Positions 7,884 to 20,524 of a stretch of 64,000 bases of DNA are shown one piece after another. The stretch spans positions 2,046,001 to 2,110,000 of the forward strand of contig CP099652.1 of assembly GCA_024123955.1 (NCBI GenBank), in the 5' to 3' direction. The notes below the pieces were generated by a model, which saw nothing but the letters and a program-made list of their open reading frames with translations, had not been told where the DNA came from and made no database searches. This stretch comes from Oxalobacteraceae bacterium OTU3CINTB1. Lineage in GTDB: Bacteria > Pseudomonadota > Gammaproteobacteria > Burkholderiales > Burkholderiaceae_D. The position numbers were made by a program, and so were the translations under genes. The first letter of the stretch is position 1, and each line of letters begins with the position of its first letter.

Positions 7884-8798
7884 TTAATTTGCCGCGTCAT
7901 CCGACCGGATAAAATCCACGAACGCGCGCAACGGCGCGGGCAAGTGGCGCCTGCCCGAATAGTATAAAAACGGTCCTGGGAAATCCGCCCACCAATCCCG
8001 CAGGATCGGCTGCAACTCGCCGGAGGCCATGTACGGCTCCAGCCACTCCTCGAACAGATAAATCACGCCGTGTCCCGCCACGGCCGCGCTCACCGCCAGG
8101 TCGAACACGGTCGGCGTGACGACCAGCGGCCCGCTCGGCTCGACCGTCAAGGTCTGGCCGTCGCGCGCGAATTCCCATGGATAGATGGCGCCACTGAGAA
8201 ACTTGCCCCGCAGGCAGGCGTGTTGCAGCAGGTCGCGCGGGTGTTCGGGCACGCCGCGCCGCGCCAGATAGTCGGGCGCGGCCGCCACCGCGAAACGCTG
8301 CACGCGCGGCCCGATCGGGATGGCGATCATGTCCTGTTCCAGCCGCTCGCCGTAGCGGATGCCGGCGTCGCAGCCGCTGGCGACGACGTCGACGAAGTTA
8401 TTGTCGATCACCACGTCCAGCACGATCTCCGGATAGGCGCGCATGAAGCGGTTGACCAGCGGCTGCAGGAAGAAGCGCGCGGCGCTGACCGGCACGTTGA
8501 GCCGCAGGGTGCCGCGCGGACTGTCGCGCAGCTCGTTGAGCACGTCGAGGGCGCCGGCCACCTGGCTCAGCGCCGGTTGCAGGCGCGCCAGCAACAGGGC
8601 GCCGGCCTCGGTCGGGGTGACGCTGCGGGTGGTGCGCAGCAGCAGCCGGATGCCGAGCTGGTTCTCCAGCCGCCGCAGCGCCTCGCTCAGCGCCGACGCC
8701 GATTGCCCGCCGGCGCGCGCCGCCTGCCGGAAGCCGCCGTGCTGGGCCACGAGCGCGAAAGTGGCCAGGTCGGCCATGGAAGGGTTCTCAGGTGTCAT
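7884..8798 (-). CDS. LysR-family transcriptional regulator
   Basis: This 304-residue LysR-type regulator has its winged helix-turn-helix at about residues 8-66 (MADLATFALVAQHGGFRQAARAGGQSASALSEALRRLENQLGIRLLLRTTRSVTPTEAG, shown by this conserved layout). A periplasmic-binding-like effector domain follows (from about 95), ending near the C-terminus. It is divergent from the aldo-keto reductase gene that starts at 8915, which is its most probable target. LysR proteins of this AKR/SDR-linked type usually respond to small carbonyl or aromatic compounds, but the effector is not visible in the sequence. Confidence 0.92.
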   Translation of the reverse strand: MTPENPSMADLATFALVAQHGGFRQAARAGGQSASALSEALRRLENQLGIRLLLRTTRSVTPTEAGALLLARLQPALSQVAGALDVLNELRDSPRGTLRLNVPVSAARFFLQPLVNRFMRAYPEIVLDVVIDNNFVDVVASGCDAGIRYGERLEQDMIAIPIGPRVQRFAVAAAPDYLARRGVPEHPRDLLQHACLRGKFLSGAIYPWEFARDGQTLTVEPSGPLVVTPTVFDLAVSAAVAGHGVIYLFEEWLEPYMASGELQPILRDWWADFPGPFLYYSGRRHLPAPLRAFVDFIRSDDAAN

Positions 8799-8914
8799 GT
8801 TCTCGATTGTGCGGAATTTCGTACAGCCCGTGCGGCATTGCCCCCATTATCACACGCTCGTCCTGCCGCTACCATGTGTCCATGCTTTTCCACATCACAC
8901 ACCAGGAGATCGAC

Positions 8915-9781
8915 ATGAGTAGTTATTCCCCATCCAGCGACCAGTTCACTCCCGCCAACAGCGGCATCCGCTTCAACCGCGTCGGCTACGGCGCCATGCA
9001 ACTGGCCGGCCCGCACGTGTGGGGGCCGCCGAAGGACCGCGCCGCCGCCGTTGCCGTGCTGCGCGAGGCGATCGAACTGGGCATCAACCACATCGACACC
9101 TCGGATTTCTACGGCCCGCACGTCACCAACCAGATCATCCGCGAAGCCTTGCATCCGTATCGCGACGATTTGACCATCGTCACCAAGATCGGCTTCGTGC
9201 GCGGCGCCGACCAGTCATGGCTGACGGCGGCCTCGCCGCAACAACTGCGCGACGCGGTCCACGACAATCTGCGCAACCTGCAACTGGAGGCGCTCGACGT
9301 GGTCAACTACCGCGCCCCCGGCGTGCAAGGCCCGGACGGCTCGTCGATCGGCGAAGCCATCGCGGCGATGGTGCGTCTGAAGGAGGAGGGACTGATCCGC
9401 CATATCGGCGTGAGCAACGTCACCGCCGGACAGGTGGCCGAGGCGCGCTCGATCACGGACATCGTCTGCGTGCAGAACCAGTACAACCTCGCCCATCGCG
9501 GCGACGACGCGTTGATCGATACGCTGGCGGCCGATGGCATCGCCTACGTGCCGTTCTTCCCGCTGGGCGGCTTCTCGCCGTTGCAGTCCGACGCCCTGAC
9601 CAGGGCGGCCGCCGCGCTGGGCGCGCAGCCGATGCAGGTGGCGCTGGCCTGGCTGTTGCAGCGCTCGCCCAACATCCTCGTCATTCCCGGCACCTCGTCG
9701 GTGGCGCACCTGCGGGACAACGTCGCCGCCGGCGCCTTGCGCCTTGACGCCGCCACCCTGGCGACCCTGGACGCCATGTGA
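8915..9781 (+). CDS. Aldo/keto reductase family oxidoreductase
   Basis: This 288-residue (beta/alpha)8 NADPH-dependent oxidoreductase has tetrad positions D61 and Y66 (HIDTSDFYG) and K91 (VTKIGF). The fourth position, normally His in the D-L-x-x-x-H strand, reads DVVNYR, so Arg133 replaces it. This replacement is found in a recognised subgroup of bacterial AKRs rather than marking a dead enzyme. The cofactor end (IPGTSSVAHLRDNVAAGAL) is intact. The start is the ATG at 8915 after CAGGAGATCGAC. It is divergently transcribed from the LysR gene. The substrate is unknown. Confidence 0.91.
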   Translation: MSSYSPSSDQFTPANSGIRFNRVGYGAMQLAGPHVWGPPKDRAAAVAVLREAIELGINHIDTSDFYGPHVTNQIIREALHPYRDDLTIVTKIGFVRGADQSWLTAASPQQLRDAVHDNLRNLQLEALDVVNYRAPGVQGPDGSSIGEAIAAMVRLKEEGLIRHIGVSNVTAGQVAEARSITDIVCVQNQYNLAHRGDDALIDTLAADGIAYVPFFPLGGFSPLQSDALTRAAAALGAQPMQVALAWLLQRSPNILVIPGTSSVAHLRDNVAAGALRLDAATLATLDAM

Positions 9782-9808
9782 CGCCGGCTGTGGGAAATCC
9801 GACACAAA

Positions 9809-9840
9809 AATTACTTTCTGGAAAGTAATTCTGTTATGAT
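9809..9840 (+). promoter_or_regulatory. Promoter with 22-base perfect palindrome (diguanylate cyclase gene)
   Basis: AATTACTTTC (9809-9818) and GAAAGTAATT (9821-9830) are exact inverted arms separated by TG. The palindrome overlaps a possible -35 (TTACTT, 9811-9816), with TATGAT (9835-9840) as -10 at an 18-base spacing. The site lies 60-90 bases upstream of the diguanylate cyclase start. ACTTTC/GAAAGT arms resemble operators of MarR/HxlR-type repressors, but no such gene is adjacent; the link is inference. Confidence 0.5.
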
Positions 9841-9900
9841 CCCACGACGAGGCCCAACCCCCGCCGCGTTTTTACCCGTTAAAAATAGCCCAAGGGAAGT

Positions 9901-11550
9901 ATGTCGCAGTCCACCATCAACGTGTCCGACCCCATCGCGCCGGCGCCCGCCGGCGCCGATGGCGGGGCGGGCGCGTCGAAACTGGTGCAGCTTGAAGGGA
10001 AAAAGCGGCCGATCCGGCGCGCCGCCTCGCTGTTCCTGGTTGCCATCCTGTGCGCCATCTGCGGCTTGCAGTTCGCCTACCGCAGCAACGCCCGCCAGAC
10101 CCAGCTCGACGAGAGCGCCCGCGCCACCGTCAACATCGCCCGCGCGACCGCCGAGCACGCCGAGCGCACGATCGACATCGTCGGCTCGGTGCTGTTCGGC
10201 GTCGTCGAGCGCGTCGAGCGCGACGGCACCGGCCCGTCCAACTTCGCGCGCCTGCAGGCGCTGCTCCAGGCCCGCGTGGCGCAGACCAGCGGCCTGCAGG
10301 GCATCTTCGTCTACGATGAACACGGGCGCTGGGTGATCACCTCGCTCGACAAAGTCGATCCCGGCGCCAACAACGCCGACCGCCCGTATTTCCAGTACCA
10401 CCGCACGCATGCCGGGCGCGGCGTCCACATCGGCACGCCGGTGCGCAGCCGCTCGTCCGGCCAATGGATACTGCCGGTGTCGCAGCGCGTCGACCACGCC
10501 GACGGCTCGTTCGCCGGCGTCGTGCTGGCCACCGTCCGCACCGACTACTTCCAGCAGTACTACAACGGCTTCGACATCGGCAAGGCCGGCGGCATCTTTA
10601 TCGCGCTCGACGACGGCACCTTGATCGCGCGCCGGCCGATGCTCAACAACGTCATCGGCAGCAGCCTCAAAGGCGGCGCCGTGTTCACGCTGATCGACCA
10701 GGGCCAGGACAGCGGCACGGCGATGCGGGTGGCGCTGGTCGACAATGTCGAGCGCCTGTACAGCTACCGGCGCGTGCACGGTTATCCGCTGGTGATCGCC
10801 GCGTCGCTGTCCAAGGACGAAATCTTCGCGCAGTGGTGGACCGACACCTGGCGCCAATGCGGCGCGCTGGCGCTGCTGCTGGCCACGCTGGGCTGGCTGG
10901 GCACGCGCCTGATCCGCCAGATCAGCCTGCGCGACCATCTGGAAATCGAATTGCGCCACTCGCAAGCCGCCTTGCAGCACAGCGTCGCGCAGCTCGAGCT
11001 GCTGGCGACAACCGACCCGCTGACCGGCCTGAAGAACCGGCGCCACCTCAACGAGCGGCTCGAGAGCGAACTGGCGCGGGCGGCGCGCGACGGCCTGCCG
11101 GTGGCGCTGGTGATGCTCGACATCGACTTTTTCAAGCGCTACAACGATACCTACGGCCACCTGGCCGGCGACGCGTGCCTCAAGCTGGTCAGCGACGTCG
11201 TCGCGCGCGCCGCGCAGCGCACCGCCGACATCGCCGCGCGCTTCGGCGGCGAGGAGTTCGTGGTATTCCTGCCCAACACCGAACTGGCAGGCGCGCACGC
11301 CGTTGCCGAGGGCATTTGCGCGGCCGTGCGGGCGCTCGGACAGCCCCACCGCACCAGCGATTTCGGCGTCGTCACCATCAGCGCCGGGGTCGCCGCCTGC
11401 GTGCCGGTGCGCGGCGCCGGCTGCAGCCCGCTGATCGGCGTGGCCGACCGGGCGCTGTACGACGCCAAACACCGGGGCCGCAATCGCGTGTCCCCGCCGC
11501 TGAGAAGCGGCCACCATCCGCTGCCGCAGCCGGCCTGCGCCGACGCCTGA
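9901..11550 (+). CDS. Membrane-bound diguanylate cyclase with periplasmic sensor domain
   Basis: This 549-residue protein would make cyclic di-GMP. TM1 is at about residues 41-59 and TM2 at 319-336. Between them lies a periplasmic double-PAS (dCACHE-like) sensor (about 65-315, with YDEHGRWVITS and DRPYFQYHR, the usual ligand-loop motifs). A short coiled link leads to the GGDEF domain (about 370-530). The active motif is GGEEF (449-453), and the product-inhibition I-site RxxD is intact at R440-D443, five residues upstream. The protein should therefore be an active, feedback-inhibited cyclase responding to a periplasmic small molecule. It stands just upstream of the encapsulin locus, but 214 bases separate them and co-function is not shown. 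Confidence 0.94.
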   Translation: MSQSTINVSDPIAPAPAGADGGAGASKLVQLEGKKRPIRRAASLFLVAILCAICGLQFAYRSNARQTQLDESARATVNIARATAEHAERTIDIVGSVLFGVVERVERDGTGPSNFARLQALLQARVAQTSGLQGIFVYDEHGRWVITSLDKVDPGANNADRPYFQYHRTHAGRGVHIGTPVRSRSSGQWILPVSQRVDHADGSFAGVVLATVRTDYFQQYYNGFDIGKAGGIFIALDDGTLIARRPMLNNVIGSSLKGGAVFTLIDQGQDSGTAMRVALVDNVERLYSYRRVHGYPLVIAASLSKDEIFAQWWTDTWRQCGALALLLATLGWLGTRLIRQISLRDHLEIELRHSQAALQHSVAQLELLATTDPLTGLKNRRHLNERLESELARAARDGLPVALVMLDIDFFKRYNDTYGHLAGDACLKLVSDVVARAAQRTADIAARFGGEEFVVFLPNTELAGAHAVAEGICAAVRALGQPHRTSDFGVVTISAGVAACVPVRGAGCSPLIGVADRALYDAKHRGRNRVSPPLRSGHHPLPQPACADA

Positions 11551-11642
11551 GCAAGCCCTCACAGATTCCCGCCACCCCGGCCGGCGCCCGCCGCGCGTCG
11601 TCCATCGACGGCATTTCCGTCGCATAGACGGTTTTCATCTTT

Positions 11643-11677
11643 GCGAAGTTGATTTTATTCGTTTTGTTTGACTTCGC
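11643..11677 (+). promoter_or_regulatory. Inverted repeat upstream of the rhodanese/encapsulin locus
   Basis: GCGAAGT (11643-11649) and ACTTCGC (11671-11677) form inverted arms around an AT-rich loop, in the only low-GC stretch (about 11640-11700) of the region before the rhodanese gene. A TATATT lies at 11685-11690, but no well-spaced -35 was found. It may hold the promoter or a regulator site of the sulfur nanocompartment cluster. Confidence 0.3.
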
Positions 11678-11764
11678 CAAAACGTATATTTCATTCCGCA
11701 AGCCGTCTATCGCCATCAACGGCCGGCGGCTCGCCACCATTCCAAGCCATCATAAGGTCTCTCT

Positions 11765-12235
11765 ATGTCAGTTGACGTCCTCTCGCCGGCGCTGCCTCCA
11801 GTGCTGGCATCGATCAAGGCCGATGCGGCCGCGTCCCAATTGCCGTATGCCGGCGGCGTCGCCCCGGCCGCCGCCTGGGAACTGTTTTCCACCAAGGACG
11901 TGCTGCTGGTCGACGTGCGCACCGGCGAGGAGCGCAAATTCGTCGGCCACGTGCCGGACAGCTTGCATGTGCCGTGGGCAACCGGCACCGCGCTGACGCG
12001 CAACCCGCGCTTCGCGCGCGAACTGGAAAGCAAAATCGGCGGCAAGGACAGCGTGGTCCTGCTGCTGTGCCGCAGCGGCAAACGTTCAGCGCTGGCGGCC
12101 GAGGCGGCCACGAAAGCCGGCCTTACCAACGTCTTCAACGTGCTAGAAGGCTTCGAGGGCGAGATCGACGCGCGCCAGCAGCGCGGCAAGGCCGACGGCT
12201 GGCGCTTCCACGGCTTGCCGTGGGTGCAGGACTAA
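11765..12235 (+). CDS. Rhodanese-like sulfurtransferase of the encapsulin locus
   Basis: This 156-residue single-domain rhodanese transfers sulfane sulfur through a cysteine persulfide. The active-site loop is CRSGKRS (C102-S108), a full six-residue loop typical of thiosulfate/persulfide-type rhodaneses. DVRTGEERKFVGHVPDSLHVPW carries the conserved CH2A motif and substrate arginine. A 30-residue N-terminal extension precedes the domain. It is the first gene of a same-strand series leading to EpsC, the encapsulin shell and the desulfurase cargo; rhodaneses are recurring neighbours of family 2A encapsulins. It may take persulfide from, or deliver it to, the cargo desulfurase. No signal peptide is seen, so it acts in the cytoplasm. 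Confidence 0.9.
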   Translation: MSVDVLSPALPPVLASIKADAAASQLPYAGGVAPAAAWELFSTKDVLLVDVRTGEERKFVGHVPDSLHVPWATGTALTRNPRFARELESKIGGKDSVVLLLCRSGKRSALAAEAATKAGLTNVFNVLEGFEGEIDARQQRGKADGWRFHGLPWVQD

Positions 12236-12281
12236 ACCGCGGCGTTCAACCAGCACTCAACCATATCCCGACGAGGACAGC

Positions 12282-13229
12282 GTGGCTACTTTCGACATCA
12301 CCACCATCGTGCAATCGCTGCATGAGGCGCGCCACCGCTGGCGCCAGGAGCAAAGCCGCGGCAGCGAGCCGGGCGGGCGTGAATTCCCGTCGCGGAACGC
12401 GCTGGCGGCCATCATCGACAGCCTCAAGGGCGTGCTGTTCCCGATGCGCCTCGGCCCGCCGGACCTGCGCCAGGAAAGCGAGGACTTCCACGTCGCCCAC
12501 GCGCTCGATGGGGTGCTGCACGCGCTGCTCAAGCAGGTGCGGCGCGAGTTGAAATACAACGCCGGCCTGCGTGGCGAACCGTTGCGCGTGGTCGATTCCA
12601 GCGTCGAGCACGACATCGACCAGGAGGCGCTGGGCGCCGTGCGCCGCTTCGCCGCCGCGCTGCCGGTGATCCGCTCGCTGCTCGACAGCGACGTCATGGC
12701 CGCCTACCAGGGCGACCCGGCCGCGCGCAGCGTCGACGAGGTGCTGCTGTGCTACCCGGGCGTGCTGGCGATGATCCACTACCGCATCGCCCACCAGCTT
12801 TATACGCTAGGCCTGACCTTGCTCGCCCGCATCGTCTCCGAGCTGGCGCACGGCGCCACCGGCATCGACATCCACCCCGGCGCGCGCATCGGCGCCGGCT
12901 TCTTCATCGACCACGGCACGGGCGTAGTGATCGGCGAGACGGCCGTCATCGGCGCCCGCGTGCGGCTGTACCAGGCCGTCACGCTCGGCGCCAAGCGCTT
13001 CCCGACCGACGCCGACGGCAACCTGCAAAAGGGCTTGCCGCGCCATCCGGTGGTCGAGGACGACGTCGTCATCTATGCCGGCGCCACGGTGCTCGGACTG
13101 ATCACGATCGGCAAGGGCGCCATCATCGGCGGCAACGTCTGGCTGACGCACGACGTGCCGCCGGGCGGGCGCATCGCCCAGGCCGAGTCGCGGGTTGGCG
13201 CCTTCGCCAACGGCATCGCGGCGGCCTGA
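12282..13229 (+). CDS. epsC: Serine O-acetyltransferase, EpsC type
   Basis: This 315-residue enzyme makes O-acetylserine from serine and acetyl-CoA, the first step of cysteine synthesis. The C-terminal left-handed parallel beta-helix (about 190-300) has DIHPGARIGAGFFIDHGTGVVIGETAVIG, including the catalytic His211 region, and the hexapeptide turns are regular. The N-terminal 185 residues are helical and longer than in enteric CysE; this long form is the EpsC/SATase type repeatedly found beside family 2A encapsulins. The start is GTG at 12282 after CGAGGACAGC. It sits 46 bases after the rhodanese gene, and its product would supply the cysteine that the cargo desulfurase consumes. A true CysE-type feedback site cannot be confirmed by eye. 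Confidence 0.92.
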   Translation: MATFDITTIVQSLHEARHRWRQEQSRGSEPGGREFPSRNALAAIIDSLKGVLFPMRLGPPDLRQESEDFHVAHALDGVLHALLKQVRRELKYNAGLRGEPLRVVDSSVEHDIDQEALGAVRRFAAALPVIRSLLDSDVMAAYQGDPAARSVDEVLLCYPGVLAMIHYRIAHQLYTLGLTLLARIVSELAHGATGIDIHPGARIGAGFFIDHGTGVVIGETAVIGARVRLYQAVTLGAKRFPTDADGNLQKGLPRHPVVEDDVVIYAGATVLGLITIGKGAIIGGNVWLTHDVPPGGRIAQAESRVGAFANGIAAA

Positions 13230-13245
13230 GCGGCGCGGCGGCCCC

Positions 13246-13544
13246 ATGAACACCCTTGTGCGCAGCTTCGGCATCGGCGTGCGGCAACTGCGCGAGGCGC
13301 AGGGATGGTCGCAGGAACAACTGGCCGAAAACTCCAACCTGAACCGCTCGTATGTGGGCGAGATCGAGCGGGCCGGGTGATCGCCTCGCTGTTGACGGTG
13401 GAGAAGCTGGCGCTGGCGCTCAAGCTGACGCCGTCGGCCTTGCTGACGCGCGGCGAAATGGTCGGCGACGCCACCACCCCCGCGTCCATCCCCCCCGGGT
13501 CAGTGCCGACATTCGGACACAAGCTCGGCAGGCGAACGGATTAG
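13246..13544 (+). pseudogene. XRE-family regulator broken by a frameshift
   Basis: The frame MNTLVRSFGIGVRQLREAQGWSQEQLAENSNLNRSYVGEIER is a good XRE/Cro-C1 helix-turn-helix, but it stops at TGA 13378-13380. The next frame, one base off, continues with the expected sequence GRVIASLLTVEKLALALKLTPSALLTRGE. Restoring one base in the GAGCGGGCCGGG run (about 13363-13375) would rejoin them as EIERGRVIASL, a normal XRE reading. The 3' end then runs into the inverted repeat at 13497-13571 and stops in its loop, so the original C-terminus seems lost as well. It lies 16 bases after epsC. It may be a decayed regulator of the cluster; a sequencing error is the alternative for the frameshift. Confidence 0.75.
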
Positions 13545-13571
13545 TCCGTGTCTGAATGTCGGCACTGACCC
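13497..13571. repeat. 24-base inverted repeat with 27-base loop (REP-like hairpin)
   Basis: The left arm (13497-13520) begins GGGTCAGTGCCGACATTC. The right arm (13548-13571) is its reverse complement with one mismatch. The loop is 13521-13547, and a C/G-rich flank (13490-13496, 13572-13586) extends the pairing loosely. The element lies between the broken XRE gene and the encapsulin shell gene. Its form suits a repetitive extragenic palindrome; copy number in the genome cannot be judged from one window. In RNA it would form a strong hairpin without a T-run. Confidence 0.8.
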
Positions 13572-13639
13572 CCGGGGTGGGGGGGCGATTGGTGGCGATA
13601 GCATGTTGAGCTGACTCATCAGTAACGCCATACTGGCCC

Positions 13640-13658
13640 GGTTATTTTCTGCATAACC
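13640..13658 (+). promoter_or_regulatory. Inverted repeat upstream of the encapsulin shell gene
   Basis: GGTTAT (13640-13645) and ATAACC (13653-13658) are inverted arms with a 7-base gap, about 37-55 bases before the shell start and within a locally AT-rich stretch (13640-13685). This may be an operator or promoter element giving the shell and cargo genes their own control, separate from epsC. No known regulator motif is recognised. Confidence 0.3.
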
Positions 13659-13694
13659 TTATGTGTTTTTTCACCTTACTGAAATGGAGTCACG

Positions 13695-14627
13695 ATGTCG
13701 GCAACTGTAGGCGGTACCACGGCGCTGGGCGATAACGCAGCACGGCAATTAGCGAACGCGACCAAGACCGTTCCCCAGCTCGAGACCATCAGCCCGCGCT
13801 GGCTGACGCACCTGCTGCAATGGGTGCCGGTGGAGGCGGGCATCTACCGGCTCAACAAGGTCAAGAATCCGGAAGCGATCAAGGTCACCTGCACCGCCCG
13901 CGAGCAAGAGAACCAGCTGCCGCGCACCTATGTCGACTACGAAGAAAATCCGCGCGAGTACTTCCTCAACGCCGTCTCGACCGTGCTTGACGTGCACACC
14001 CGCGTTTCCGATCTCTACAGCAGCCCGCACGACCAGATCAAGGAGCAACTGCGCCTGACGATCGAGACCATCAAGGAAAACCAGGAAAGCGAGCTGATCA
14101 ACAATCCCGACTACGGCCTGCTGGCCCAGGTGACCGACGAGCAGCGCATCTTCCCGCTGACGGGCGCGCCGACGCCGGACGACCTCGACGAGCTGCTGAC
14201 CAAGGTGTGGAAGGAGCCTGCCTTCTTCCTGACCCATCCGCTGGCGATCGCCGCCTTCGGCCGCGAGGCGACCCGCCGCGGCACGCCGCCGCCGACCATC
14301 AGCCTGTTCGGCTCGCAGTTCATCACGTGGCGCGGCATTCCGCTGATCCCGTCGGACAAGGTGCCGGTGGCCGACGGCAAGAGCAAGATCCTGCTGCTGC
14401 GCGTGGGCGACAAGCGCCAGGGCGTGGTCGGCCTGTTCCAGCCGGGCCTGCCGGGCGAGCAAAGCCCGGGGCTGTCGGTGCGCTTCATGGGCATCAACAA
14501 TCATGCGATCTCGTCGTACCTGATCTCGCTGTACTGCTCGCTCGCGGTGCTGACCTCGGACGCGCTGGCCGTGCTCGACGACGTCGAGATCAACAAGTAC
14601 CACGACTATCCGGACACTTATAAGTAA
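13695..14627 (+). CDS. Family 2A encapsulin shell protein (SrpI-type, HK97 fold)
   Basis: This 310-residue protein should self-assemble into an icosahedral protein nanocompartment. The N-terminal arm ATKTVPQLETISPRWLTHLLQWVPVEAGIYRLNK, the segment YVDYEENPREYFLNAVSTVLDVHTRVSDLYSSPHDQIKEQLRLTIE, and the C-terminal GVVGLFQPGLPGEQSPGLSVRFMGINNHAISSYLISLYCSLAVLTSDALAVLDDVEI are characteristic of SrpI-like family 2A shells. No cyclic-nucleotide-binding insert is present, which separates it from family 2B. The next gene, 9 bases on, encodes the matching cysteine desulfurase cargo with a long disordered arm, which makes the call firm. AATGGAG precedes the ATG. In known systems the shell houses sulfur metabolism and responds to sulfur starvation. 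No phage genes surround it. Confidence 0.93.
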   Translation: MSATVGGTTALGDNAARQLANATKTVPQLETISPRWLTHLLQWVPVEAGIYRLNKVKNPEAIKVTCTAREQENQLPRTYVDYEENPREYFLNAVSTVLDVHTRVSDLYSSPHDQIKEQLRLTIETIKENQESELINNPDYGLLAQVTDEQRIFPLTGAPTPDDLDELLTKVWKEPAFFLTHPLAIAAFGREATRRGTPPPTISLFGSQFITWRGIPLIPSDKVPVADGKSKILLLRVGDKRQGVVGLFQPGLPGEQSPGLSVRFMGINNHAISSYLISLYCSLAVLTSDALAVLDDVEINKYHDYPDTYK

Positions 14628-14636
14628 GCGCGCCAC

Positions 14637-16643
14637 GTGAGCCTCCTTTCGCCCCCCATCTCCCTGCCGGCGGACCGCGCCGCCGGCGTTCCCGAACCGT
14701 CCGGCGCGCCGTTCGATCCGGCCGCGCTGGCGCGCCTGGCCAACGAGTTCTTTTCGGCGCCGCCGTTCGCCCGGCAATTGAGCGTGCCCGGCGTGCAGGC
14801 GCCGGCCAATATCGCGCCGCCCGGTTCGCCGCTGGTCAGCCCGGCCGGCTTCGGTCCCAGCGTGCCCGGCACGCCGATACCGCAGGGACAAATTCCCGGC
14901 ACCAACCTGATTCCGGCGTCGCCGACCCAGGTGCTGTCGCTGGGTAACAGCGCGCCTGCGTTGTTGCCGGCCGCGCAAGCCGGCAACGGCGTGCCCGACA
15001 AGGCGTTCGGCGCGATTCCGGCGTACGAGCCGCGCAACGGTGGCGCCGTGCTTGGCGTTCCGGAAGGCGCCGGCAACGCCGGGCCGCCGGCCGAAGCGTC
15101 GTCGTACTATTTCCTGAGCGAGCGCTACGGCCAGCCTGGCGCCGCAACGCGGCAGGCGCCGGCGCCGTCGTCGCCTTTGCCGCAGGGCGCGCCGCCGTCG
15201 CCGCAAGGTTACACGCCATCGTTCCCGTCGCCGCAACTGCCCGCGAGTCCTTCGTTGTCGCCACCCGCCACCGGCTTGCCGGGCGCGTCCGCGCCGGCGG
15301 CGCCGTCGCCATCGTCGGCGCCGCAGTATTACTTCGTCGACGCGGTGGTGCTGCCGAGCGGCTACGTCACCCCGGCCAAGCCGGCGCCGCACGGCGGCGC
15401 GCCATTGGCCGGCGGCGACCGCCATCCGCCGTTCGACGTGCACGCCGTGCGGCGCGATTTTCCGATTCTTCAGGAAAAGGTCAACGGCCGCCAGCTGGTG
15501 TGGTTCGACAACGCTGCCACCACCCACAAGCCGCAGTCGGTGATCGACCGCATTGCGTATTTCTACGCGCATGAGAACTCGAACATCCACCGCGCCGCGC
15601 ACGAGCTCGCCGCCCGCGCCACCGACGCCTATGAAGGCGCCCGCGAGCGCGTGCGGCGCTTCCTCAACGCGCCCGAGGTCAACGAGGTCATCTTCGTGCG
15701 CGGCACCACCGAGGCCATCAACCTGGTGGCCAAGAGCTGGGGCGGGCAGCACGTGGGCGAGGGCGACGAGATCATCGTCTCCAATCTCGAACACCACGCC
15801 AACATCGTGCCCTGGCAGCAGCTGGCCGCCGCCAAGGGGGCGCGGCTGCGCGTGATCCCGGTCGACGACACCGGCCAGGTGTTGCTCGACGAGTACCGCA
15901 AGCTGCTCAACGACCGCACCAAGATCGTCGCCGTCACGCAAGTGTCGAACGCGCTGGGCACGGTGACGTCGGTCAAGGAAATCGTCGAGCTCGCCAAGCG
16001 CGCCGGCGCCCGGACCCTGGTCGACGGCGCGCAGTCGGTCTCGCATATGCGCATCGACGTGCAGGACATCGGCGCCGATTTCTTCGTCTTCTCCGGCCAC
16101 AAGCTGTTCGGGCCGACCGGCATCGGCGTGTTGTGGGGCAAGCGCGAAGTGCTCGAGGACATGCCGCCATGGCAGGGCGGCGGCAACATGATCGCCGATG
16201 TGACGTTCGACAAGACCGTGTTCCAGCCGATTCCCAACAAGTTCGAGGCCGGCACGGGCAACATCGCCGACGCCGTCGGGCTGGGCGCCGCGATCGATTA
16301 TGTGACGCGCATCGGCATCGAGAACATCGCTCGCTACGAGCACGACCTGCTGGTGTACGGCATTCGGGAGCTGGGCGCGATCAAGGGCGTGCGGCTGATC
16401 GGCACGGCCGCCGACAAGGCCAGCGTGATGTCGTTCGTGCTGGCCGGCTACACTACGGAAGAGGTCGGTCACGCGCTCAACGACGAAGGCATCGCCGTGC
16501 GCACGGGGCACCATTGCGCGCAGCCGATCCTGCGGCGGTTCGGCGTGGAGACGACGGTGCGGCCATCGTTGGCGTTCTACAACACGTTTGACGAGATCGA
16601 CCGCATGATCACGGTGGTGCGAAGGCTGGCATCGGCCCGCTAA
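14637..16643 (+). CDS. Encapsulin cargo: cysteine desulfurase with N-terminal targeting arm
   Basis: This 668-residue protein has two parts. Residues 265-668 are a complete SufS-type, PLP-dependent cysteine desulfurase that turns cysteine into alanine plus enzyme persulfide: NSNIHRAAHELAARAT, EHHANIVPW, the PLP lysine K489 in SGHKLFGPTGIG, and the catalytic C627 in RTGHHCAQP. Residues 1-264 are Pro/Ala/Ser/Gly-rich and predicted disordered, the form of the arm that packages family 2A cargo. Conserved-looking islands are a short helix FDPAALARLANEFFS (26-40), SSYYFLSERYG (155-165) and QYYFVDAVVLPSGYV (230-244). The start is GTG at 14637, 9 bases after the shell stop. Which island binds the shell is not known here. 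Confidence 0.95.
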   Translation: MSLLSPPISLPADRAAGVPEPSGAPFDPAALARLANEFFSAPPFARQLSVPGVQAPANIAPPGSPLVSPAGFGPSVPGTPIPQGQIPGTNLIPASPTQVLSLGNSAPALLPAAQAGNGVPDKAFGAIPAYEPRNGGAVLGVPEGAGNAGPPAEASSYYFLSERYGQPGAATRQAPAPSSPLPQGAPPSPQGYTPSFPSPQLPASPSLSPPATGLPGASAPAAPSPSSAPQYYFVDAVVLPSGYVTPAKPAPHGGAPLAGGDRHPPFDVHAVRRDFPILQEKVNGRQLVWFDNAATTHKPQSVIDRIAYFYAHENSNIHRAAHELAARATDAYEGARERVRRFLNAPEVNEVIFVRGTTEAINLVAKSWGGQHVGEGDEIIVSNLEHHANIVPWQQLAAAKGARLRVIPVDDTGQVLLDEYRKLLNDRTKIVAVTQVSNALGTVTSVKEIVELAKRAGARTLVDGAQSVSHMRIDVQDIGADFFVFSGHKLFGPTGIGVLWGKREVLEDMPPWQGGGNMIADVTFDKTVFQPIPNKFEAGTGNIADAVGLGAAIDYVTRIGIENIARYEHDLLVYGIRELGAIKGVRLIGTAADKASVMSFVLAGYTTEEVGHALNDEGIAVRTGHHCAQPILRRFGVETTVRPSLAFYNTFDEIDRMITVVRRLASAR

Positions 16644-16741
16644 CGCTGGCACGTTAGAAAACGCTATCAAACGGCGCGGCGAAAATCCGGCAAAATAGAT
16701 GTTCAATTTTGTCGAGCCGCGCCGATCCGGCCGGGCAGCCT

Positions 16742-19681
16742 ATGCCGCAAACTCCCAAAGAATCGATACCGTTGCCGCACCAGGCGGCCGATATGTTCTG
16801 CCTGATGGTGCAGGAGATCAAGGAATGCGCGATCTTCCTGATGGACACGCGCGGCGTCATCACCAGCTGGAACCGCGCGGCCGAGGTCATGAAGGGCTAC
16901 CGTGCCGACGAGGCCATCGGCGAGCACCTGTCGCTGCTCTACCGTGACGAGGACAAGGCGCGCGGCTGGGCCGACCACAACCTGGGCGAGGCGGCCAAGC
17001 ATGGCTTCTACAGCGAGGAAACCTGGCGCAGGAAAAAAGATGGCAGCCTGTTCTGGGCGCACATCGCGCTGACCGGCTTGCGCGACGAACACAAGCAATT
17101 GGTGGGCTTCTCCAAGGTCACGATGGACCTGACGCGCCACAAGCTGTTGGAACAGTGCCTCGACGAAAAAGAAGAAAACCGCCGCATCATGACCGCCGCC
17201 AACGCCGGCACATGGAAGTGGGAAGCCGCCAGCCGCCGCCTGGAGTTGTCCCCCGCGCTCAAGCAATTGCTCGGCTACGACGCCGCCGGCCCGGCGCCCG
17301 ACCCCGGCAACTGGCGCGCCCTGGTCGATCCGCAGGACGTGCCGGCCGTGCATGACAGGTTGCGCACCCTGATGACGGCCATGCCGGGGCAGCCGCTGAC
17401 CCTGGAGGTGCGGCTGTGCCGCCAGGACGGCAACTGCCGCTGGTTCTTCGTGCGCGCCGACTGGACCAGCGATAGCGAGGGCCAGGGCGAGCTGACCGGC
17501 GTCTGCGTCGACATCCACGACATGCGCCTGCTGGCCGAGGAACGCGAGCGCCTGCTCAACGAACTGCAGGTGATGCGCCTGCGCTTTCGCGCCATCATCG
17601 ACCAGATGCCGTCCGGCGTGTTCGTGGCCGAGGTGCCGTCGGGCAAGCTGCTGTATCAAAACCTGAAGGCCAGGCGCATCTTCGGCGCCACGCTCGAAGA
17701 GGTCGCCACCTATCATGACTACGCCCGCACCGACGTTCGCGATCCGGACGGGCGGCGCCTGCTGGCGCATGAGTTTCCCTTGGCGGAGGCCATCATCACG
17801 GGGCAGCCGGTGCCGGTGCGCGAATTGGTGTTCCACGTACCCGGGATGGCACCGCGCTACTTCCGCGTCGGCGCCACGCCGGTGCAGGCCGAGGGCGACG
17901 AGCGCCGCATGGCCGTGGCCGTGGCCCACGACATCGACGACCTGAAGCGGATGCAGGAATCGCTGCGGGCGGAAAAGGAACGCGCCGAGGTGACCTTGCG
18001 GGCGATTAGCAACGGCGTCATCACCACCGGCCTGGACGGCCGCATCGACAGCATGAACATTGCCGCCGAACGGCTGACCGGCTGGGGCCAACAGGAGGCG
18101 CGCGGCCTGCCGCTCGACCAGGTGCTGCAACTGGACGAGGAGCCGCCGGCAGAACTGGCTGCTCCGGCCGGTGCGGCCGATCCGTCGCCCGCGGCGCCGG
18201 GGTTGGACACCGTGCTGCGCTGCATGCGCGAAAACCGCCCGGTGACGTCGTCGGCGCCGGCGGTGTTGCGCTCGCGCAGCGGCAGCCGGCACACGATCGA
18301 CTACGCGGCCGCGCCGCTGCAACTGCCCGACAACCGCACCGGCGGCGCCGTGCTGGTGCTTAACGACGTCACCGAGTCGCGCGGGCTGCTCAAGAACCTG
18401 AGCTACCAGGCCAGCCACGACGTGCTGACCGGGCTGGTGAACCGGCGCGAGTTTGGCGTGCGGCTCCAGCGCGCGCTCGACCGCACCGGCCAGCCGGGCG
18501 CCAGCGACAGCGCGCTGCTCTACCTGGATTTGGACCAATTCAAGATTGTCAACGATACCTGCGGCCACGCGGCCGGCGACGACCTGCTGCGCCAGCTGTC
18601 GGTGGCTTACGGCGCCCATGTGCGCGAGCGCGACACGCTGGCGCGCATCGGCGGCGACGAGTTCGCGCTGATCGTCGAGCATTGCACGGTGGAGGAGGCC
18701 ATGGTGGTGGCCAACAAGCTGCTCGACACTACGCGCAACTTCCGCTACATCTGCAGCAACCAGGTGTTCCGGCTGGGCGTGAGCATCGGCCTGACGCCGC
18801 TCGACGGCGGCACCACCACGATGGAGGAAGCGCTGCGCCAGGCCGATCACGCCTGCTACATCGCCAAGGAGAGCGGGCGCAACCGGGTGTTCCTGCAACA
18901 GCGCGGCGGCGCCGAGATCGCCCAGCGGCGCAACGACATGTATTGGGTCAAGCGGCTCGGCGACGCCTTCCGCAACGACGACTTGCAGCTGTACTACCAG
19001 CCGATCCGCGCGCTTGGCGGCGCCGGCAACGGCGGCCTGCACTACGAGATACTGCTGCGCATGAAGGATGGCAGCGCCGGGCCGGTCGGCCCCACCAGCT
19101 TCCTGCCGGCGGCCGAGCGCTACGACATCATGCAGGAGGTCGACCGCTGGGTGCTCGACCGCAGCCTGGCCTGGCTGGAGCGGCATCCCGAACACGTCGA
19201 CCAGCTGGAACTGTGCACCATCAACCTGTCGCAGCGGGCGCTGGCCGATCCGGGTTTCCAGCAGTACGCGGTCGGACGCATCCAGGCGGTCGGGGTGCCG
19301 GCCAACAAGCTGTGCTTCGAGATCACCGAGACCGGCGCCTTCGCCAACCTGCAGAACACGCTGTCGTTCGTGCTGGCGTTGCAGCAGCTGGGCTGCCGCT
19401 TCGCGCTCGATGATTTCGGCACCGGCATGGCCTCGTTCGCCTACCTGAAACAGCTGCCGGTCAATTATGTCAAGATCGACGGCTCCTTCATCCAGATGAT
19501 GACCCGCAGCACGGTCGACTTCGAGATGGTGCGCTTCACCAACGACATCAGCCACATCATGGGGCGGCGCACCATCGCCGAGTTTGTCAATGACCAGGCT
19601 ACGCTGGCCAAGCTGACCGAGATCGGCGTCGACTACGCCCAGGGTTTCATGCTGGGCGAGCCGCAGCCGCTCGACGTCTGA
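16742..19681 (+). CDS. PAS-GGDEF-EAL cyclic di-GMP protein
   Basis: This 979-residue cytoplasmic protein has four PAS-like segments in series (about 15-130, 140-260, 270-400 and 410-545; the first with CAIFLMDTRGVITSWNRAAE). A GGDEF domain follows with an intact GGDEF (637-641), then an EAL domain with EILLR (E769), NLSQ, EITETG, DDFGTG, KIDGSF and a final GFMLGEPQ. All residues known to bind Mg2+ and c-di-GMP in active EAL domains seem present, so phosphodiesterase activity is likely and bifunctionality possible. No membrane span is seen. The ATG at 16742 is used; a TTG at 16709 would add 11 residues. It starts 98 bases after the cargo gene; linkage to the nanocompartment is positional only. 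Confidence 0.93.
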   Translation: MPQTPKESIPLPHQAADMFCLMVQEIKECAIFLMDTRGVITSWNRAAEVMKGYRADEAIGEHLSLLYRDEDKARGWADHNLGEAAKHGFYSEETWRRKKDGSLFWAHIALTGLRDEHKQLVGFSKVTMDLTRHKLLEQCLDEKEENRRIMTAANAGTWKWEAASRRLELSPALKQLLGYDAAGPAPDPGNWRALVDPQDVPAVHDRLRTLMTAMPGQPLTLEVRLCRQDGNCRWFFVRADWTSDSEGQGELTGVCVDIHDMRLLAEERERLLNELQVMRLRFRAIIDQMPSGVFVAEVPSGKLLYQNLKARRIFGATLEEVATYHDYARTDVRDPDGRRLLAHEFPLAEAIITGQPVPVRELVFHVPGMAPRYFRVGATPVQAEGDERRMAVAVAHDIDDLKRMQESLRAEKERAEVTLRAISNGVITTGLDGRIDSMNIAAERLTGWGQQEARGLPLDQVLQLDEEPPAELAAPAGAADPSPAAPGLDTVLRCMRENRPVTSSAPAVLRSRSGSRHTIDYAAAPLQLPDNRTGGAVLVLNDVTESRGLLKNLSYQASHDVLTGLVNRREFGVRLQRALDRTGQPGASDSALLYLDLDQFKIVNDTCGHAAGDDLLRQLSVAYGAHVRERDTLARIGGDEFALIVEHCTVEEAMVVANKLLDTTRNFRYICSNQVFRLGVSIGLTPLDGGTTTMEEALRQADHACYIAKESGRNRVFLQQRGGAEIAQRRNDMYWVKRLGDAFRNDDLQLYYQPIRALGGAGNGGLHYEILLRMKDGSAGPVGPTSFLPAAERYDIMQEVDRWVLDRSLAWLERHPEHVDQLELCTINLSQRALADPGFQQYAVGRIQAVGVPANKLCFEITETGAFANLQNTLSFVLALQQLGCRFALDDFGTGMASFAYLKQLPVNYVKIDGSFIQMMTRSTVDFEMVRFTNDISHIMGRRTIAEFVNDQATLAKLTEIGVDYAQGFMLGEPQPLDV

Positions 19682-20437
19682 CTAGATCTGCGCCAGGCCG
19701 CCATCGACGAACAGCTCGATGCCGTTGACGAAGCTGGCGTCGTCGGAGGCCAGGAACACCGCCGCCTTGGCGATCTCGTCGGGCTCGCCAACGCGGCCCA
19801 TCGGAATCTGCGTGGCGAAGTAGTCGAGCAGGCCTTGCTGCTGGGCGGCGTCCGGCCCGGCCAGTTCCACCAGGCCCGGCGTCTTGATCGGACCGGGGCT
19901 GATGGTGTTGACGCGGATACCGCGTCCCTTCAGGTCAAGGATCCAGTTGCGGGCGAACGAACGCACTGCCGCCTTCGACGCCGCGTAGACGCTGAACGCC
20001 TCGGTGCCGGTGCTGGCGGCGGTCGAGCCGGTCAGTATCACCGACGAGCCTGCGCCCAGCAGCGGCAGCGCCGCCTGCACCGTGAACAAGGTGCCTTTGA
20101 CGTTGCGGTTGAAGGTGTCGTCGAAGTGTTCCTCGGTGATCTGGCCCAGCGGCAGCATCGAGCCGCCGCCGGCGTTGGCCACCAGCACATCGAGCTTGCC
20201 GTGCTCGGCCTTGACGCGCTCGAACAGTGCGGTCAACTGCGCCGGGTCGGCCGAATCGACGCGCGCGCCGATCGCGGCCGCGCCGACGGCGTCGACGGCG
20301 GCGTCCAGTTCCGGCTGGCGGCGCCCGGTGATGTAGACGCGCGCGCCCTCGGCGGCGAAACGCTTGGCGACGGCCAGGCCGATGCCGCTGGTGCCGCCGG
20401 TGACCACTGCTACTTTTCCTTCGAGTTTCTGGGACAT
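19682..20437 (-). CDS. SDR-family oxidoreductase
   Basis: This 251-residue classical SDR has TGGTSGIG in the cofactor loop, ANAGGG, the catalytic serine in TGSTAAS and the YAASK tyrosine/lysine pair. The C-terminal [16 protein letters not shown] is the standard family ending. Acidic D61 after the third strand ([11 protein letters not shown]) fits typical cofactor contacts, and the TGRR pair after strand two favours NADP(H). Its stop codon abuts the stop of the convergent PAS-GGDEF-EAL gene with no space and no terminator visible. It is divergent from a LysR-type regulator at 20576 that probably controls it. Substrate unknown. Confidence 0.92.
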
Positions 20438-20524
20438 GATGTTTTCCTTTGCGTTGGGTTGCGGCCTGAAAGACCATGGAAGCAGTGTGCGGCCGAAACA
20501 CCCCTGCGATAAGACAGGCTGGAC

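What the first reader, a model, noticed from the sequence alone, without database searches (positions are those of the whole stretch)
11765..16643. Family 2A encapsulin sulfur nanocompartment locus: rhodanese - EpsC - shell - cysteine desulfurase
The shell gene (13695-14627) encodes an SrpI-type HK97-fold protein. The next gene encodes a SufS-type desulfurase with a 264-residue disordered arm, and the preceding genes give cysteine synthesis (EpsC) and persulfide transfer (rhodanese). Seen in sequence: gene order, catalytic residues K489 and C627, rhodanese CRSGKRS, acetyltransferase beta-helix. Known: family 2A encapsulins package cysteine desulfurases and are linked to sulfur starvation. Inference: this cell stores or processes sulfane sulfur inside the shell, with EpsC feeding cysteine and rhodanese moving persulfide across or near the shell. 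This is the most exciting system of the window.
Basis: partly seen in the sequence, partly recalled or inferred. Interest (0 to 1): 0.9.

Follow-up and report, generated by a model that had tools for sequence, protein, structure and literature searches.

The report
Sulfur encapsulin operon with own controller
This is a known kind of bacterial protein shell that encloses a sulfur-releasing enzyme; what looks new is a small controller gene, related to those that switch restriction enzymes, lying between the helper genes and the shell, with matching DNA sites at both promoters.

Summary
11765-16643 encodes a rhodanese, an EpsC-type serine acetyltransferase, a family 2A encapsulin shell (encap_f2a 530 bits, cut-off 380) and its cargo cysteine desulfurase (f2_encap_cargo1 926 bits, cut-off 800). 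The core interpretation is in print: 1281 such operons, with serine acetyltransferase and rhodanese the most enriched accessory genes (PMC8346489, passages). As an encapsulin locus it is ordinary.

Between EpsC and shell lies a small XRE/HTH gene (window 13246-13457; frame broken here, open in relatives) whose best solved relatives are the restriction-modification controllers C.AhdI and C.BclI. It is in 87 of 97 related loci. A C-box-like element (GGC-TATA-GCC; window 13589-13609) abuts the -35 of a putative shell promoter in 79 of 79 deduplicated XRE-positive and 0 of 9 XRE-negative loci. A weaker copy lies at the rhodanese promoter in 53 of 85 regions.

I infer a dedicated local regulator and two transcription units. 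Four searches of the held library found no report of it. That XRE binds these sites, and in which direction it acts, is inference.

The parts
11652..11690 (+). putative rhodanese promoter: conserved T-rich block 11652-11669 and -10-like TATATT 11685-11690
   Evidence: aligned upstream regions
11700..11719 (+). degenerate second operator-like palindrome at the rhodanese promoter (7 of 20 mismatches to the ideal); core GTCTATCGCCATCAA 11705-11719
11765..12235 (+). single-domain rhodanese, C102
12282..13229 (+). EpsC-type serine O-acetyltransferase
13246..13457 (+). XRE/HTH_3 regulator related to restriction-modification C proteins; reading frame broken in this genome near 13377, open in relatives
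13491..13577 (.). hairpin repeat inserted at the 3' end of the XRE gene
13589..13609 (+). operator-like element TTGGTGGCGATAGCATGTTGA (one core change from GGCTATAGC)
13606..13634 (+). putative shell promoter: -35 TTGAGC 13606-13611, 17 bp, -10 CATACT 13629-13634
   Evidence: not listed by the consensus scan
13695..14627 (+). family 2A encapsulin shell protein
14637..16643 (+). cargo cysteine desulfurase with 264-residue N-terminal arm, K489, C627

Best explanation
The locus is a family 2A encapsulin operon. The shell protein assembles into a compartment that takes up the cysteine desulfurase by its unstructured N-terminal arm; cysteine enters, sulfur is released onto C627 and is kept inside or handed to an acceptor, for which the linked rhodanese is the candidate; EpsC raises the supply of O-acetylserine for cysteine. 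In the Burkholderiales group around this genome the locus has its own regulator, an XRE protein related to restriction-modification controller proteins. The genes form two units, rhodanese-epsC-xre and shell-desulfurase, each with its own promoter and a site for the XRE dimer. At the shell promoter the site is centred near -42, next to the -35 of a promoter with a poor -10, which fits activation; at the rhodanese promoter it lies over or after the -10, which fits repression of the unit that encodes XRE itself. Shown by sequence: genes, families, co-occurrence of XRE and element, conservation at the DNA level, one exact element per genome in the genus sample. Inferred: assembly, loading and sulfur fate in this species, the promoters, that XRE binds these sites, and the directions of regulation. 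In this genome the XRE frame is broken (real loss or sequencing error), so the switch may be disabled here. My odds: family identity 0.97, XRE acts at these sites 0.8, the stated directions 0.55.
For: Curated models and solved relatives for shell and cargo. Loading-arm motifs. XRE in 87 of 97 related loci; best solved relatives C.AhdI and C.BclI. Element in 79 of 79 deduplicated XRE-positive loci (58 exact, 14 with one, 6 with two, 1 with three mismatches) and 0 of 9 XRE-negative; in a second set of 17 loci 5 of 5 and 0 of 12, of which 2 and 10 are new. Element non-coding in 24 of 79 loci; in the other 55 it spells the last XRE codons, with ATA for Ile in 55 of 55, against 15 ATA in 1725 Ile codons of the shell genes. 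Exact element once in each of 16 of 40 genus genomes, always at this locus. XRE orthologue (93 bits or more, or the split own copy) in the same 16 genomes; the next best HTH scores 43 bits. TTGA then 17 or 18 bp to a -10-like hexamer. Second site in 53 of 85 rhodanese upstream regions against a shuffle mean of 0.87 and maximum of 2. C-box literature, passages only: GAC-TATA-GTC with an outer TG; box upstream of and partly overlapping a weak promoter, distal dimer activating in EcoRV.
Against: No binding or expression data. The element lies at the 3' end of the XRE gene, so one deletion can remove both, which weakens the co-occurrence argument. The -10 hexamer matches the consensus at only 3 of 6 places in 68 of 79 loci, and the consensus scan of the window did not list this promoter. 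One dimer site is seen per promoter, whereas a typical C-box holds two. 11 of 80 aligned sites, the window's among them, have G for T in the core. The window's own rhodanese site has 7 of 20 mismatches, and 32 of 85 regions have none at 6 or fewer; both patterns were drawn from these same loci. 2 of 7 XRE-negative loci also show a rhodanese site. XRE is broken in the genome examined. The conserved block before the rhodanese gave no link to sulfur genes.
Confidence: 0.75

Rival explanations
1. XRE is a repressor at both promoters: its site touches the -35 of the shell promoter as well as the -10 of the rhodanese promoter, and it keeps the whole locus off until a sulfur signal removes it.
For: In the shell element the conserved block runs through TGTTGA into the -35. 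C proteins can repress or act as roadblocks (passages). A repressor that is lost would leave the locus on, which could be tolerated, as in the window and in L036.
Against: The palindrome centre lies near -42, upstream of the -35, with a poor -10 behind it, the usual layout for activation (general knowledge of class II activators).
Confidence: 0.3
2. The locus is only a standard family 2A encapsulin operon; the XRE gene is a passenger and the element is a plain promoter conserved for its own sake.
For: 9 of 88 deduplicated loci do without XRE; the frame is broken in the window.
Against: The XRE orthologue occurs only at this locus in 40 genus genomes, its frame is open in all 87 loci where it was found by homology, up to the frame's own stop (one of 88 counting the window is broken), and the palindrome upstream of the -35 is as invariant as the -35 itself.
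Confidence: 0.15
3. The shell is a phage capsid remnant or another encapsulin family.
For: HK97-fold proteins are shared with phages (general knowledge); the shell passes the 2B cut-off too.
Against: encap_f2a 530 bits against 414 for 2B, no cNMP domain, cargo desulfurase model 926 bits next door; solved encapsulins as best relatives.
Confidence: 0.02

Closest known systems
Synechococcus elongatus PCC 7942 SrpI-CyD encapsulin (family 2A)
   Same: Shell and desulfurase of the same families, EpsC upstream, rhodanese in the cluster, cargo arm with the same motif types; 72.3% shell identity over 95%.
   Different: There the order is cysK, epsC, srpI, cyd, rhodanese on a plasmid, with no HTH gene beside the shell; an Rrf2 regulator lies further off. 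Here rhodanese comes first, no cysK is in the cluster, and an XRE gene and operator-like element precede the shell.
Family 2A desulfurase encapsulin operons of Andreas and Giessen 2021 (PMC8346489)
   Same: Serine acetyltransferase and rhodanese as most enriched accessory genes; the rhodanese-channelling idea (passages).
   Different: No dedicated transcription factor is mentioned in the passages seen; supplementary figures were not available to me.
Controller (C) proteins of restriction-modification systems (C.AhdI, C.BclI, C.Esp1396I)
   Same: Small XRE protein with C.AhdI and C.BclI as best solved relatives; palindrome with a TATA centre and an outer TG (passage); site next to a weak promoter (passage).
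   Different: No restriction or methylation gene beside it; half-sites GGC/GCC instead of GAC/GTC; one dimer site per promoter; the neighbours are an encapsulin and sulfur enzymes.

Membership tests
Family 2A encapsulin shell | match to the curated 2A shell model, no cNMP domain | tested here: met
   encap_f2a 530 bits over residues 11-305, cut-off 380; Pfam SrpI-like as the only Pfam match
Family 2A encapsulin shell | HK97-type shell protein with solved encapsulin relatives | tested here: met
   559.5 bits to 8t6r, 483.5 bits to 6x8m SrpI; by sequence only, no model made
Family 2A encapsulin shell | assembly into icosahedral particles | not testable with these tools
   needs expression and electron microscopy
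Family 2A cargo cysteine desulfurase | SufS-type domain with PLP lysine and catalytic cysteine, plus N-terminal arm with loading motifs | tested here: met
   f2_encap_cargo1 926 bits, cut-off 800; K489, C627, LARLANEFFS at 31, YYF at 157 and 231
Family 2A cargo cysteine desulfurase | arm-dependent loading into the shell | not testable with these tools
   shown for S. elongatus CyD (passages), not here
EpsC serine O-acetyltransferase | match over the curated EpsC cut-off | tested here: met
   NF041874 164.8 bits, cut-off 150; below the cysE equivalog cut-off, 171 against 211
Restriction-modification controller (C) protein | small XRE/HTH_3 protein close to solved C proteins | tested here: met
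   C.AhdI E 4.5e-11 and 5.4e-11, then C.BclI, for two intact relatives; HTH_3 over its cut-off also for the window's N-terminal part
Restriction-modification controller (C) protein | linked to restriction and methylation genes that it controls | tested here: not met
   flanking genes are aldo/keto reductase, GGDEF, GGDEF-EAL and SDR; none in the annotated Variovorax locus. It may work like one but is not filed as one
Restriction-modification controller (C) protein | C-box of two adjacent dimer sites with GAC/GTC half-sites | tested here: not met
   one palindrome per promoter, GGC-TATA-GCC

The most novel reading that the evidence does not exclude
A controller-protein circuit of the kind that times restriction enzymes has been taken over to run a sulfur-storing nanocompartment: XRE represses its own rhodanese-epsC-xre unit and activates shell and cargo, from one C-box-like site each, giving a sharp and possibly bistable switch, so that only some cells or only some moments make the compartment.
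Probability: 0.3. Interest if true: 0.65.

Novelty: new variant of a known kind. Interest (0 to 1): 0.42.

Why it matters
Family 2A desulfurase encapsulins are widespread, yet four searches of the held library found no report of a dedicated DNA-level regulator for one. A named regulator with one pair of candidate sites, kept across Burkholderiales, turns the question of what switches the compartment on into a single gel shift, and gives a handle to switch it for study. It would also be a controller protein best known from restriction systems serving a metabolic compartment.

Tried and rejected
Conserved block ATTTTATTCGTTTTGTTT before the rhodanese as a sulfur-starvation box: 3 hits in the genome with up to 2 mismatches; one is here, one lies beside a MarR-like gene and a Rieske oxygenase (read by eye), not a sulfur gene; the third was not examined. 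Dropped.

XRE C-terminal LAAIAC with its cysteine as a thiol sensor: rejected, because these residues are the reading of the DNA element, which stays where XRE ends earlier.

Wider regulon of the shell element: own genome with 2 mismatches gave 12 hits against 17 for the reversed control; only the shell site is exact. In 40 genus genomes 16 exact hits and 25 with one mismatch, against 20 control hits at up to one mismatch, so the one-mismatch hits are near chance; they were not examined one by one.

Rfam, 8000-20500: no family over its gathering score; the MIR6143 match is the hairpin repeat. Hairpin against plasmids: no match. Two exact hits of the rhodanese-site core away from the operon (G014, G027) share one sequence context and show no match to the operon's proteins; taken as chance.

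Not done: structure prediction, fold search, the large protein database search, a tree of XRE, covariation of XRE with its site. Work showing elemental sulfur in an Acinetobacter encapsulin is recalled only; one search listed no such paper.
Full report
CHECK. Each passes curated models: family 2A shell 530 bits (cut-off 380), family 2A cargo desulfurase 926 bits (cut-off 800), EpsC 165 bits (cut-off 150), rhodanese 52 bits (cut-off 22.2). The shell matches solved encapsulins over residues 8-310 (8t6r 559.5 bits) and 9-305 (SrpI 6x8m 483.5 bits); the desulfurase domain matches 8kg1 from residue 260 on. Catalytic residues are as stated and the arm has LARLANEFFS and two YYF. The arm diverges fast: LARLANEFF with up to 2 mismatches is in 31 of 86 related cargo frames and at least one YYF in 55 of 86 (a few of these frames are cut by contig ends). 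The genome has one SrpI-like gene and, besides EpsC, two stronger CysE-like matches at 4705820 and 2989708 of the contig, so EpsC is not its only serine acetyltransferase candidate.

WHAT IS KNOWN. Passages of PMC8346489 report 1281 family 2A desulfurase operons, name serine O-acetyltransferases and rhodaneses as the most enriched accessory components, and propose that a co-regulated rhodanese takes sulfur at the capsid exterior. Passages of PMC8049743 report arm-dependent loading, upregulation on sulfur starvation, about sevenfold faster catalysis when encapsulated, and a storage-cage model. The encapsulin is thus a member of a known kind.

THE MISSED GENE. I compared 97 loci: 17 from genomes related to the window and the 80 above. 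Between EpsC and shell 87 of 97 carry a frame of 74-96 residues counted from the homologous start. After removing identical regions 88 loci remain, 79 with the gene and 9 without. It is an XRE/HTH_3 protein whose best solved relatives are C.AhdI (E 4.5e-11) and C.BclI (likewise). A public Variovorax plasmid record annotates the order rhodanese, epsC, helix-turn-helix regulator, shell, cargo. In 40 genomes of the genus, 15 hold an orthologue of 93-137 bits; the window's genome holds it split over two frames (78 and 45 bits); the next best HTH match is 43 bits. Of the 37 genus genomes scanned for the shell, 16 have it; 15 of these have XRE, G015 has not. XRE without shell occurs in G029 only, where rhodanese, EpsC, XRE and element remain but shell and the first part of the cargo are missing.

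THE ELEMENT. Before the shell lies TTGRYGGCTATAGCMTGTTGA. With up to 3 mismatches in the 16-base core it is in 79 of 79 XRE-positive loci (58 exact) and 0 of 9 XRE-negative, within 2500 bases. In a draw of 398 genomes of the phylum 17 have the shell; of the 17 loci I then looked at (16 of those plus L002), 5 have XRE and element (3 exact, 2 with one mismatch) and 12 have neither. The element often encodes the last XRE codons, but it is the DNA that is kept: in 24 of 79 loci XRE stops before it, and in the other 55 the isoleucine codon is ATA 55 times, a codon used 15 of 1725 times for Ile in the shell genes of the 97 loci. Its right end is TTGA, followed after 17 (66 loci) or 18 bp (13 loci) by the best -10-like hexamer, which matches TATAAT at 3 of 6 places in 68 loci, 4 in 5 and 5 in 6. 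This is a weak promoter, called from position and conservation; the simple consensus scan of the window did not list it. In 40 genus genomes exactly one exact copy is found in each of 16, all at this locus. The core GGC-TATA-GCC with outer TTG parallels the best C.Esp1396I site, GAC-TATA-GTC with an outer TG (passage of PMC3758141).

THE SECOND SITE. Having seen related sequence before the rhodanese, I scored the idealised palindrome TTGGTGGCTATAGCCACCAA from 300 bases before to about 60 after its start: 53 of 85 regions hold a copy with at most 6 of 20 mismatches, against a mean of 0.87 and a maximum of 2 of 85 in 30 rounds of shuffling. The shuffles keep base content only and the pattern came from the same data. 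By group it is 51 of 78 XRE-positive (window included in the 78) and 2 of 7 XRE-negative. The window's copy has 7 mismatches and is not among the 53; its core GTCTATCGCCAYCAA is exact in 14 of 40 genus genomes, in 13 of them at this operon; the two other hits are one unrelated sequence. In many loci the site overlaps the -10; in the window it follows it.

READING. Two units, each with a site: upstream of the -35 for shell and cargo (activation more likely), on or after the -10 for the unit that holds XRE (repression more likely). In passages of PMC6237814 the C-box lies upstream of and partly overlaps a weak promoter, and a distal dimer activates it in the EcoRV system, while C.Kpn2I acts as a roadblock. 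No regulation has been shown here. In this genome the frame is broken and a hairpin repeat, one of many in the genome, sits at the gene's end, while element and promoter stand.

LITERATURE. Searches for encapsulin with XRE (1 paper; passages treat the two apart), with helix-turn-helix (4 listed; one of them seen in passages), with controller protein, C-box or restriction-modification (50 papers holding two terms, 15 listed, none with encapsulin), and with cysteine desulfurase, operon and transcriptional regulator (3 papers; two seen in passages) found no such regulator. Supplements and most subscription journals were not seen, so absence from print is only that.

Noticed in passing
window 13491-13577: Hairpin with 30-nt arms (90% complementary); the arm TCAGTGCCGACATTCGGACAC has 34 hits with up to 1 mismatch in the genome, many as facing pairs within 100 bases; control 0. 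It looks like a REPIN-type repeat and also codes the altered XRE tail in the sister locus L041.
   Followed up: partly
L165 4541-7068 (G029): A decaying encapsulin operon: rhodanese, EpsC, XRE and the element remain, shell and the front of the desulfurase are missing.
   Followed up: yes
L036/L045 (Duganella sp. 1411): XRE and the shell promoter are gone and EpsC runs almost directly into the shell gene, so the shell would be read from the rhodanese promoter.
   Followed up: partly
L123 (Halomonas sp. SpR8): A shell 88% identical outside Burkholderiales (order by name, recalled), with rhodanese close upstream but no EpsC or XRE match; suggests horizontal transfer.
   Followed up: no
window 9901-11550 and 16709-19681: The operon is flanked on both sides by cyclic-di-GMP genes: a Cache-GGDEF protein and a PAS-GGDEF-EAL protein.
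   Followed up: partly
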